The notes beneath the pieces were generated by a model. It was not told where the DNA came from. It was given only the letters and a program-made list of their open reading frames with translations, and did not search any database. This document shows positions 8,321 through 11,400 of a stretch of DNA of 52,616 bases, piece by piece. The position numbers and the translations under genes were made by a program. Position 1 is the first letter of the stretch. Each line of letters begins with the position of its first letter. The stretch is taken from positions 1 through 52,616 of IMG/VR virus record IMGVR_UViG_3300048433_000716; one strand, 5' to 3'. The stretch is from a virus.

Positions 8321-8704
8321 ATGACTAAATACACTTACTCAGACGAACTAGTATCAGATTTACATAAAGATGCTTGGGGTTTTAGACCTCGTGAAAAATT
8401 TTGGTTTTATTGGGAAATTTCAGACCAAGATGCAAAGCAAGCTATTTGGGATAACCTTATTGATGATATGGTTAAAAACCAAGCTGAAGAAATTCAAACT
8501 AAAAAAGATAATGCTTCAATGCTTGCTGAAAGAATTAAAAGGGTTTGTAAGCTTGGTGCTCAAAATTACAGAACTGCAATTAAATGGATACTTGAAGCAG
8601 ATGAGTTAGAGCCTGACTTTCAATATGGTGGCGACCATTTAGCTTGGCATTACCATATTGAATACAGACACAGTAAATTATTTAAACTAGCGGGAGTAGC
8701 ATAA
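8321..8704 (+). CDS. Hypothetical protein upstream of the DUF932 gene
   Basis: 127 residues, tryptophan-rich (DAWGFRPREKFWFYWE near residues 17-32). Helical in the middle, with a C-terminal HLAWHYHIEYRHSKLF stretch. Similar small proteins are frequent next to DUF932 genes in marine phages, but I know no function. Its stop overlaps the DUF932 start (ATAATG). Confidence 0.65.
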   Translation: MTKYTYSDELVSDLHKDAWGFRPREKFWFYWEISDQDAKQAIWDNLIDDMVKNQAEEIQTKKDNASMLAERIKRVCKLGAQNYRTAIKWILEADELEPDFQYGGDHLAWHYHIEYRHSKLFKLAGVA

Positions 8705-9618
8705 TGTTAGATACAAAAATGGAAGAAGCGTTACAAGACGTATCATTTAAAATTGATGTGAGGGATATTCAAGGTATCCCTTCACATATGGGCAGAAAAG
8801 TAGTTCGCCTTAATGCCTATGGTCAGCAAGAAGGTGATCCTCTTGGTATCGTAGGTTCTAGATATAAACCTATACACCATATGGATGCTTTTGGTGGAGC
8901 TATAGAATCAATGAAAAATGGTGGTCTAGACTTTACTGATCATGAAATCAAAGTTGACACTTATGAAGATGGTGCAATGGCTAAGATGGAATTATTGCTT
9001 CCTGCACATAACACTAAAGTTGGCGACCACGATTTATCACTAAAGTTTGTAGCTAGAAATAGTTACAACGCTAGATGGAAGTTTCAGTCTTTCTTTGGTT
9101 GGATGAACCATGTATGTTTTAATACGTTAGTAAGTGGTCAAAAGATTGCTTATACTGCTAACAGACATACTACTCATTTCAACGTAGACGCCTCTAACAA
9201 AAAGATACAGAATGCAGTAAGTGCGATTACTAATGAAGCTCAAACTTTCAACAAGTGGTGGGATACTAAAGTAGAGGATGAACAAGTTATCGATCTGTTT
9301 AAATCTACTATTGCAAAAAGCCAAGCTAACGATATTAAAATTGCTAGTGGTCAGTCAGACACTAATAAAAAGCAACTATATCATTTAATGGGCTTATATG
9401 AGGCTGAGGTGGCTCAAATTCATGGAAGGGGTGATTATGGCAGAAATGGTGCTAAAGGCTCTCTATGGTGTGCTTATCAGTCAGCAACTGCTTGGTCTAC
9501 CCACTTAGGTGACGTAAAAGCTAATAGCACAAATAAATATATAGTCGAGCAACGTAGACAAAACGATGTGAGGTCTATGATTAATAGTAACAAGTGGAAA
9601 CAACTTGAAAATGCATAA
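8704..9618 (+). CDS. DUF932 / TIGR03299-type phage protein
   Basis: 304 residues matching the DUF932 family of phage and plasmid proteins: GSRYKPIHHMDAF, KMELLLPA, LSLKFVARNSYNARWKF, HVCFNTL and then the long helical tail. The family's biochemical role is unknown. It lies in the early block, followed at once by a hairpin that may cut or attenuate transcription into the ATPase/GNAT pair. Confidence 0.75.
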   Translation: MLDTKMEEALQDVSFKIDVRDIQGIPSHMGRKVVRLNAYGQQEGDPLGIVGSRYKPIHHMDAFGGAIESMKNGGLDFTDHEIKVDTYEDGAMAKMELLLPAHNTKVGDHDLSLKFVARNSYNARWKFQSFFGWMNHVCFNTLVSGQKIAYTANRHTTHFNVDASNKKIQNAVSAITNEAQTFNKWWDTKVEDEQVIDLFKSTIAKSQANDIKIASGQSDTNKKQLYHLMGLYEAEVAQIHGRGDYGRNGAKGSLWCAYQSATAWSTHLGDVKANSTNKYIVEQRRQNDVRSMINSNKWKQLENA

Positions 9619-9661: not shown

Positions 9662-10807
9662 ATGGAAGATTTATATGGATACAAAAAAACTATATTAAGA
9701 AGTGAGGTGGAGCTTTCAGATATAGATAAAGAAATATTTAAAAACTTTGATTATAAGTTTGATGGGGTCACTGAGTTTGAGTTACCTCATTTCGAGCCTT
9801 TCAAGGAGGACTTTTCTATTGGCGTTATTTATGGGTCAAGTGGTAGTGGTAAATCCTCTATGCTTGCTCAGTATGGTAAAGAAGAGGAATTGACTTGGGA
9901 TAACAACAGAACCATAGCATCTCATTTTGATAGCGTAGAAGACGCCATAGAGCGATTTGGTGCAGTTGGTCTTAATACTGTTCCAACTTGGGCTAAACCT
10001 CGACATGTATTATCAAATGGTGAAGGCTTTAGATGCGACCTAGCTAGACGTTTAGGTAACGATATTGTTATTGATGAGTTTACTTCAGTTGTAAACAGAG
10101 ATGTAGCTAAGTCATGTTCATTATCTTTATATAAGTATGTAAAGCGTAAAGGGCTTAAGAATATTGTACTAGCCACTTGTCACGATGATATCTTAGAATG
10201 GCTGCAGCCAGATTGGGTATTTAACACTGATGTGAAGCGATTCGCATCAAGGGGGTTAGTTCGGCAACCCATTAAAGTTAAAATTGTCAAGGGGAACAGA
10301 AACCACTGGGAACTATTTAAAAAGCATCACTATCTAAGCGAAGACCTTCCAGCTTCTGCACACTGCTATCTTGCAGTTTGGAACGATAGAATTATTGGGT
10401 TTTCTTCAGTCATGTCTTTGCCTGGTTGGACACCACCTCTTTACGAAGGCGACAAGCGTCTTAAGTGGCGTGAGGCTAGAACAGTAGTCCTTCCAGACTT
10501 TCAAGGGCTAGGGATAGGTGTAAGGCTTTCTGACGCTATTGCAGATATGATGATAGAGAAGAATGTACGTTATTACTCTAAGACCTCACATATTAGAATG
10601 GGTGAATACAGACAAAAGTCACCTCTATGGAGGGCTAGTGCTAGTAATTTAAAAGACAGAAGTAGTGACATACATGACCATAAGAAGCGTCTTATACCTT
10701 TAGAAAGAGATAGAATTTGTTATTCTCACGAATATATAGGCGAAAACAATAAGTCATATGACCCCAAGTATAATCGCCCTGACGATCCACAACAAAGCTT
10801 GTTCTAA
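9662..10807 (+). CDS. ABC-type ATPase fused to a GNAT acyltransferase domain (COG2401-like)
   Basis: 381 residues from the ATG at 9662, chosen for GAGGAGAAGG upstream and for lying after the hairpin. The N-terminal half is a complete ABC ATPase: Walker A GSSGSGKS (about 58-65), signature LSNGE (117-121), Walker B IVIDE (135-139) and H-loop TCHDD (H174). Residues 203-360 are a GNAT fold with the acyl-CoA motif QGLGIG (281-286) and a conserved HHYLS near 222. This two-domain plan is known as COG2401, whose substrate is not known. It is cytoplasmic, with no membrane segment. A GNAT-only relative follows. Confidence 0.8.
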   Translation: MEDLYGYKKTILRSEVELSDIDKEIFKNFDYKFDGVTEFELPHFEPFKEDFSIGVIYGSSGSGKSSMLAQYGKEEELTWDNNRTIASHFDSVEDAIERFGAVGLNTVPTWAKPRHVLSNGEGFRCDLARRLGNDIVIDEFTSVVNRDVAKSCSLSLYKYVKRKGLKNIVLATCHDDILEWLQPDWVFNTDVKRFASRGLVRQPIKVKIVKGNRNHWELFKKHHYLSEDLPASAHCYLAVWNDRIIGFSSVMSLPGWTPPLYEGDKRLKWREARTVVLPDFQGLGIGVRLSDAIADMMIEKNVRYYSKTSHIRMGEYRQKSPLWRASASNLKDRSSDIHDHKKRLIPLERDRICYSHEYIGENNKSYDPKYNRPDDPQQSLF

Positions 10808-11400
10808 TGATATTTGAATATCATAAAGACAATTCTAAATATCTATCTACAAAACTTACGAAGCCTAAAATAAATGTAGATATAATTCATGGTGATAGAA
10901 AGCTATGGGATATATTTAAGAAACACCATTATCTTAGTGAAGATTTACCTGCATCCACAAGATGTTACTTTGCTGTATGGGAGGGCAATATTATTGGATT
11001 TAGTGCTACAATTAGTTTGCCAGGCAAAATACCACCTTTATATGAAGGCGACATAAGAAAAAAATGGAGGGAATGCAGAACTGTAATAATACCAGACTTT
11101 CAAGGATTGGGTATTGGAACTAGATTTTCTGACGCTATAGCTGACATACACATAGAGCAAGGTTATAGATATTTTAGCAAGACATCTCACATGAGGATGG
11201 GGCTATATAGAGAAAAGTCATCTATATGGAAAGCAACAGCGACCAATCTAGCAGACAGATCGAAAAGCACCAAAGGAAAAAGTTGGGCACATCTTACGCT
11301 TGAAAAAGAACGAATATGTTATTCACATGAATATATAGGTAAAGATAGAAAATCCTATAACCCTAAATATAACGCCACTACTCACCCTTTATTGATCTGA
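10807..11400 (+). CDS. Stand-alone GNAT paralog of the preceding fusion
   Basis: 197 residues, very similar throughout to the C-terminal half of the previous protein: the same KKHHYLSEDLPAS, PPLYEGD, PDFQGLGIG, SKTSHMRMG and ICYSHEYIG blocks, in the same order. The ATPase half is absent. It starts on the stop codon of the fusion gene (TAATG), so the two are co-translated, and it overlaps the convergent leftward gene by 23 bases. It looks like a tandem duplication that kept only the acyltransferase, perhaps as a partner subunit. Confidence 0.8.
   Translation: MIFEYHKDNSKYLSTKLTKPKINVDIIHGDRKLWDIFKKHHYLSEDLPASTRCYFAVWEGNIIGFSATISLPGKIPPLYEGDIRKKWRECRTVIIPDFQGLGIGTRFSDAIADIHIEQGYRYFSKTSHMRMGLYREKSSIWKATATNLADRSKSTKGKSWAHLTLEKERICYSHEYIGKDRKSYNPKYNATTHPLLI

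What the first reader, a model, noticed from the sequence alone, without database searches (positions are those of the whole stretch)
9662..11400. ABC-ATPase/GNAT fusion followed by a GNAT-only duplicate: possible new DNA- or RNA-modification module
The fusion has all ABC motifs (GSSGSGKS, LSNGE, IVIDE, H-loop) plus a GNAT with QGLGIG. The next gene repeats only the GNAT half and is co-translated. The COG2401 architecture is known but has no assigned reaction. The GNAT core (HHYLS, CYLAVW or CYFAVW, then a hydrophobic strand) recalls Mom-type GNATs of phage Mu that modify adenine; this last step is inference from pattern only. A catalytic GNAT plus a DNA-sensing ABC partner would make an anti-restriction or genome-marking pair.
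Basis: partly seen in the sequence, partly recalled or inferred. Interest (0 to 1): 0.65.

Follow-up and report, generated by a model that had tools for sequence, protein, structure and literature searches.

The report
Phage ABC-acetyltransferase module, likely DNA-modifying
A phage carries an ATPase fused to an acetyltransferase-type enzyme plus a second copy of the enzyme half, and in related phages this exact spot is filled instead by known DNA-modifying genes, so it most likely puts a still unidentified chemical mark on the phage's DNA.

Summary
In detail: 9662-10807 encodes an ABC-ATPase/GNAT fusion (381 aa). It is followed by a TAATG-coupled GNAT-only paralogue (10807-11400, 59% identical). 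Both keep every family-invariant residue, and the paralogue is under purifying selection (dN/dS 0.06-0.14). The GNAT is not a Mom-family enzyme by sequence or fold. [quoted passage not shown] New here is slot-exchange evidence. In the window's own phage group, near-identical contigs carry ABC-GNAT+GNAT2, ABC-GNAT+Mom, Mom alone, or ABC-GNAT alone after the same gene. ABC-GNAT also swaps with Mom in Porphyromonas and Arthrobacter phages. In Gordonia phages it swaps with a 7-deazaguanine cassette and with an ADDT/P-loop-kinase/TET-like hypermodification cassette. It is often led by a ParB-like gene and in three phage lineages followed by a formyltransferase gene. Best reading: an ATP-driven, acyl-CoA-dependent DNA base modifier that protects phage DNA, with the extra GNAT in the position Mom holds in sister phages. 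The chemistry is unproven. Cultured phages (Gordonia Shatter/Sour/CloverMinnie, Arthrobacter EastWest/Wyborn) make it directly testable by nucleoside mass spectrometry.

The parts
9662..10807 (+). ABC-ATPase/GNAT fusion gene (381 aa)
9833..9856 (+). Walker A GSSGSGKS (residues 58-65)
   Evidence: G58, S60, G61, G63, K64 invariant in 112 homologues
10010..10024 (+). ABC signature LSNGE (residues 117-121)
   Evidence: S118 and G120 invariant
10064..10078 (+). Walker B IVIDE (residues 135-139)
   Evidence: D138 and E139 invariant
10181..10183 (+). H-loop histidine H174
   Evidence: invariant
10502..10519 (+). GNAT CoA-binding loop QGLGIG (residues 281-286)
   Evidence: Q281 and G282 invariant
10807..11400 (+). 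GNAT-only paralogue (197 aa), overlaps the fusion stop by one base (TAATG)
11101..11118 (+). CoA-binding loop QGLGIG of the paralogue (residues 99-104)
8704..9618 (+). DUF932 gene, left border of the exchangeable slot; also precedes Mom in L066, L067, L070
11378..12145 (-). convergent 255-aa gene, right border of the slot in this genome; function unknown

Best explanation
The two genes are a phage DNA-base-modification module. The soluble ABC half (no transmembrane part) most likely pairs on DNA and uses ATP binding and hydrolysis to open or position the duplex. The GNAT half then transfers an acyl group from acyl-CoA to an exocyclic amino group of a base, so that host restriction enzymes no longer cut. 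The second, ABC-free GNAT is an old, still-active paralogue. It sits where sister phages keep Mom, and probably supplies a second acyltransfer activity or assembles with the ABC half in trans, as the separately encoded GNATs of Firmicutes phages must. Shown: gene structure, conservation, selection, folds, slot exchange. Inferred: DNA as substrate, acyl-CoA as donor, which base, protection from restriction, division of labour between the two GNATs.
For: (1) Own phage group: L004 and L066 share DUF932 (97.7% DNA identity, 399 b) and the downstream genes (90.4%, 1550 b). Between them L004 has ABC-GNAT+GNAT2 and L066 has Mom (Mom by PF25680, E about 1e-38). L005, L006, L009-L013, L018 have ABC-GNAT then Mom 36 b later, where the window has GNAT2. 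(2) Porphyromonas: phage006a (ABC-GNAT+formyltransferase) vs 012a and 013a (Mom), about 85% identical flanks; 010a has an empty slot. (3) Arthrobacter: EastWest ParB+ABC-GNAT vs Martha and Wyborn ParB+Mom, both flanks conserved. (4) Gordonia: between ParB and terminase, Shatter has ABC-GNAT+formyltransferase; Sour has DpdA-like, QueC, QueD, QueE, GTP cyclohydrolase (terminase 81% DNA identical); CloverMinnie has Tet_JBP-like, ADDT, P-loop kinase. The same preQ0 gene set gives dPreQ0 at about 28% of G in Rosebush DNA (PMC6884629). (5) ParB-like gene within 400 b upstream in 62 of 72 genome loci, 0 hits in 591 kb of control loci; one ParB-ABC-GNAT single ORF, L218. (6) Mom is rare, 226 of 50,697 phage records, so repeated sharing of its slot is unlikely by chance. 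(7) GNAT keeps an invariant Q-G pair and a near-invariant Q-G-x-G-x-G CoA loop.
Against: No biochemical or mass-spectrometric data exist here. The GNAT falls among generic GNATs, not Mom. Slots can turn over without shared function. ABC-GNAT and Mom also occur side by side, so they are not simple substitutes. The window itself has no ParB, formyltransferase or Mom, and outside this group ParB adjacency in IMG/VR loci is only 11 of 83. The phage still avoids GC-only palindromes strongly, so any mark does not remove all restriction pressure.
Confidence: 0.74

Rival explanations
1. RNA modification: the ATPase-GNAT acetylates tRNA or another RNA, as TmcA (ATPase plus GNAT) acetylates tRNA-Met C34.
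For: TmcA 2zpa is a Foldseek hit of the fusion model (rank 32, E 1.1e-5, but TM-score only 0.27). NAT10-type RNA cytidine acetyltransferases appear weakly in the profile search (E about 0.08). ATPase-then-GNAT order is shared.
Against: The ATPase is of ABC type, not a helicase. The slot partners, Mom, preQ0 and ADDT cassettes, are DNA-modification genes. No tRNA gene or tRNA-modification gene is consistently adjacent.
Confidence: 0.09
2. Protein acetyltransferase used for host takeover or as a toxin, like phage Rac or AtaT; the ABC half recruits or regulates it.
For: Generic GNAT fold; best PDB neighbours are protein or small-molecule acetyltransferases.
Against: Does not explain exchange with three different DNA-modification machineries, the ParB association, or the wide chromosomal spread in Planctomycetes with ParB.
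Confidence: 0.09
3. GNAT2 is not a second enzyme but a regulatory or structural partner of the fusion (heterodimer subunit). This concerns only the second gene and is compatible with the best explanation for the fusion.
For: TAATG coupling; only present next to the fusion, never alone, in the loci seen. Absent from isolate phages.
Against: All family-invariant and CoA-loop residues kept in all five orthologues. It takes the place of the independent enzyme Mom in sister phages.
Confidence: 0.25
4. The slot is only an accessory-gene hotspot and the shared position with Mom carries no functional information.
For: Slots next to structural genes often hold varied accessory genes; L068 and L069 hold neither gene, Jawnski holds two small unknown genes.
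Against: Four independent phage groups exchange ABC-GNAT with DNA-modification genes, which are rare overall.
Confidence: 0.12

Closest known systems
ABC-ATPase-coupled GNAT predicted to acylate a DNA nucleobase (Iyer et al., cited in PMC7824862; example Tenacibaculum phage pT24); phrog_11143
   Same: Same domains and family: pT24 ABC and GNAT genes match the fusion at 37%, E 3e-50; phrog_11143 E 1e-105
   Different: Fused in one chain here, split in pT24; extra GNAT-only paralogue; no ParB neighbour
Mom family (PF25680; phage Mu Mom, PDB 8bv8), adenine N6-methylcarbamoylation
   Same: GNAT superfamily; shares or exchanges genome slot in three phage groups; both can follow a ParB-like gene
   Different: No profile similarity beyond the GNAT fold; Mom alignment shows no Q-x-x-G-x-G loop at the matching place; no ABC partner
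7-deazaguanine phage DNA modification (FolE-QueD-QueE-QueC-DpdA; PMC6884629)
   Same: Occupies the same ParB-to-terminase slot in Gordonia phage Sour
   Different: Unrelated enzymes and chemistry
TET/JBP-kinase-ADDT pyrimidine hypermodification
   Same: Occupies the same slot in Gordonia CloverMinnie
   Different: Unrelated enzymes
TmcA tRNA(Met) cytidine acetyltransferase
   Same: ATPase followed by GNAT, CoA-dependent acylation of a nucleobase (from knowledge); weak fold hit
   Different: Helicase-type ATPase, RNA substrate, no ABC signature

Membership tests
ABC-GNAT (phrog_11143; PMC7824862 prediction) | full ABC nucleotide-binding motifs incl. signature and H-loop | tested here: met
ABC-GNAT (phrog_11143; PMC7824862 prediction) | C-terminal or adjacent GNAT with Q-G-x-G-x-G loop | tested here: met
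ABC-GNAT (phrog_11143; PMC7824862 prediction) | homology to the pT24 example | tested here: met
   E 3e-50; the paper's accession itself was not fetched
ABC-GNAT (phrog_11143; PMC7824862 prediction) | acyl modification of a DNA base | not testable with these tools
   needs nucleoside mass spectrometry
COG2401 | match to the COG2401 model | not testable with these tools
   no COG library held; no paper held names it
Mom (PF25680) | match to Mom profile | tested here: not met
   no hit for either protein
Mom (PF25680) | profile-profile similarity to Mom | tested here: not met
   probability 5.7, 46 columns
Mom (PF25680) | fold closer to Mom 8bv8 than to other GNATs | tested here: not met
   not among the 50 best PDB hits shown; a viral Mom only at rank 20
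TmcA | helicase ATPase and tRNA-binding domain | tested here: not met
   ABC-type ATPase, no such domain
housekeeping peptide acetyltransferase (RimI type) | specific match to a curated family | tested here: not met
   only the broad Acetyltransf_1 model passes its cut-off; no NCBIfam cut-off reached

The most novel reading that the evidence does not exclude
ABC-GNAT enzymes make a DNA base not yet described (an acylated exocyclic amine, further formylated in lineages with the linked formyltransferase), with ParB-like loaders placing them on DNA, and the window's phage group exchanges Mom for a second GNAT and so writes two different acyl marks.
Probability: 0.4. Interest if true: 0.82.

Novelty: new variant of a known kind. 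Interest (0 to 1): 0.62.

Why it matters
The ABC-GNAT family is widespread: at least 442 hits among species-representative genomes (the listed best 80 mostly Planctomycetes) and 51 phage records. A DNA-modifying role has been predicted, but the reaction is unknown. Near-isogenic phages that carry it, Mom, a preQ0 cassette or nothing in one slot turn an old prediction into a simple comparison of virion nucleosides. A new DNA base would add to the few acyl-type marks known and give a new anti-restriction mechanism that may need ATP.

Tried and rejected
Mom kinship by sequence or fold: rejected. Known defence-system membership: only a 24-residue P-loop match in PADLOC, rejected. ParB, Mom or formyltransferase elsewhere in the window: none. 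Slot survey in 80 more distant relatives of the downstream gene: neither ABC-GNAT nor Mom outside the window's group, so the exchange is local to this group and the named isolate groups. Mom-like hits in L029 and L196 are below the PF25680 cut-off and were not counted. Restriction-site avoidance as a test: strong, but shared by relatives with and without the modules, so uninformative. Pfam scan of all immediate neighbours gave few recurrent families because ParB_N is too broad; a local profile was needed. Komp_PAO1_1 slot relatives were too distant to use.

Full report
WHAT IS THERE. The record is a 52,616-base virus contig. ORF 9662-10807 (+) encodes 381 aa with a full set of ABC ATPase motifs followed by a GNAT domain. 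ORF 10807-11400 (+) overlaps its stop by one base (TAATG) and encodes 197 aa that are 59% identical to the GNAT half. Pfam gives Acetyltransf_1 for both (2.6e-6, 2.8e-5) and no Mom; PHROGs gives phrog_11143, unknown function. The left neighbour is a DUF932 gene, the right neighbour a convergent 255-aa gene of unknown function.

CONSERVATION AND FOLD. In 112 homologues, 21 positions are invariant. They include Walker A, signature, Walker B, H-loop, and on the GNAT side F219, H223, Y224, R273, P278, Q281 and G282. The paralogue keeps all of the GNAT residues. Among five orthologues of the paralogue dN/dS is 0.06-0.14, so it is a working gene. The tree puts all GNAT2 copies in one clade (100/99) next to the fusion GNATs of this phage group (90/70). 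The duplication is therefore probably older than the present members, with later loss or exchange. AlphaFold models are confident (fusion pLDDT 91.1, pTM 0.86; GNAT2 86.7, 0.81). Foldseek finds ABC nucleotide-binding domains for the fusion and generic GNATs for GNAT2.

IS IT MOM? No. hhalign of the GNAT family against a Mom alignment gives probability 5.7 over 46 columns. The family profile finds 30 PDB chains, nearly all generic GNATs, but not Mom 8bv8, which the Mom profile finds at 1.5e-73. The Mom alignment has H-Y and an E-L-x-R-type strand, but shows no Q-x-x-G-x-G loop at the matching place.

SLOT EXCHANGE IN THE WINDOW'S OWN GROUP. Contigs with fusions 75-100% identical to the window's show four states after DUF932. 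ABC-GNAT then GNAT2: window, L001-L004, L007. ABC-GNAT then a 215-aa Mom 36 b later: L005, L006, L009-L013, L018; L026 starts inside the GNAT. Mom alone: L066, L067, L070. ABC-GNAT alone: L014-L017. Mom is confirmed by PF25680 at about 1e-38. L004 and L066 are 97.7% identical over 399 b of DUF932 and 90.4% over 1550 b downstream, and differ by exactly the exchange of ABC-GNAT+GNAT2 for Mom. L068 and L069 hold neither.

SLOT EXCHANGE IN ISOLATES. Porphyromonas phages: phage006a has ABC-GNAT+formyltransferase, 012a and 013a have Mom, 010a is empty; flanks are mostly 82-90% identical. Of ten relatives, five carry ABC-GNAT and four carry a gene annotated acetyltransferase, which was checked as Mom only in 012a and 013a. 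Arthrobacter: EastWest has ParB+ABC-GNAT, Martha and Wyborn have ParB+Mom, Jawnski has ParB and two small genes, all before the same AlpA/HTH gene and sliding clamp. Gordonia: the segment between ParB (gene 1) and terminase is ABC-GNAT+formyltransferase in Shatter. In Sour it is a preQ0 cassette (annotated TGT; QueC 8e-53, PTPS 1.9e-13, GTP cyclohydrolase 4.6e-51; QueE as annotated). In CloverMinnie it is a Tet_JBP-like (5.7e-4, below the curated cut-off), ADDT (5.9e-26), P-loop kinase (9e-59) cassette. Terminase DNA identity to Shatter is 81% and 77%, and the ParB genes are homologous. Mycobacterium Akoma has a PAPS-reductase-like gene there. The preQ0 set FolE-QueD-QueE-QueC-DpdA is known to put dPreQ0 into Rosebush DNA (PMC6884629).

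PARTNERS. With a local profile, a ParB-like gene lies within 400 b upstream in 62 of 72 genome loci and in 11 of 83 IMG/VR loci outside the window's group. There was no hit in 591 kb of control loci; in L218 ParB, ABC and GNAT are one ORF. Formyl_trans_N genes follow ABC-GNAT in a Pseudomonas, a Porphyromonas and a Gordonia phage; in Gordonia the gene is annotated 'tRNA-methyltransferase'. In several phages of Firmicutes hosts, and in pT24, ABC and GNAT are separate genes, so a free GNAT must work beside a free ABC subunit there.

INTERPRETATION. The simplest reading is that ABC-GNAT is a DNA-base modifier of phages. The domains imply acyl-CoA chemistry and ATP-driven action. The slot exchange implies DNA as substrate. 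The ParB link implies loading on DNA. None of the three is proven. GNAT2 is probably a second acyltransferase placed where relatives keep Mom; a partner-subunit role is the main alternative. RNA or protein acylation would not explain exchange with preQ0 and ADDT cassettes. Co-residence of ABC-GNAT and Mom in some contigs suggests the two marks add up rather than merely replace each other.

PRIOR ART AND NOVELTY. PMC7824862 states that a GNAT coupled to an ABC ATPase was predicted earlier (its reference 136, not held; from memory Iyer et al. [quoted passage not shown] The general idea is therefore not new. I found no held paper describing the GNAT-only paralogue, the slot exchange, or the formyltransferase link; most subscription papers are not held. 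Verdict: new variant of a known, uncharacterised kind.

Noticed in passing
whole window: GC-only palindromes are nearly absent (CGCG 0 of 16 expected, GCGC 1 of 50, GGCC 8 of 75) while GC-only non-palindromes are not depleted; shared by relatives, weaker in relatives with neither module (O/E 0.31). Suggests strong host restriction pressure on GC-only sites.
   Followed up: partly
L047 1805-2452 (Gordonia phage Shatter gene 3): Annotated 'tRNA-methyltransferase' but matches Formyl_trans_N (1e-8); same family follows ABC-GNAT in Pseudomonas Komp_PAO1_1 (L042) and Porphyromonas 006a (L049).
   Followed up: partly
L054 4654-4728 (Microbacterium phage Appa): A tRNA-Gly(ccc) gene lies directly beside the ParB-Mom pair; could hint at glycyl-tRNA use by Mom.
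   Followed up: no
L218 5221-6987: ParB-like, ABC and GNAT domains in one 589-aa reading frame in a Gemmataceae genome.
   Followed up: partly
L308 801-3926 (Gordonia CloverMinnie): Genes annotated oxidoreductase, hypothetical protein, adenylate kinase match Tet_JBP (weak), ADDT and Ploopntkinase3: a probable, unannotated hypermodification cassette.
   Followed up: partly
L242 3275-3904 and Aeromonas phage PX29 (NC_023688 36309-36881): Mom co-occurs with ABC-GNAT in unrelated phages: 1.1 kb upstream in L242 (PF25680 2.8e-41) and elsewhere in the PX29 genome.
   Followed up: partly
L029 9014-9568 and L196 9296-9796: Small GNAT-like genes with sub-threshold Mom similarity (1e-3, 2e-4); in L029 the gene overlaps the end of ABC-GNAT.
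   Followed up: partly
window 8704-9618: The DUF932 gene is the constant left neighbour of the slot in this phage group; its function is unknown.
   Followed up: no
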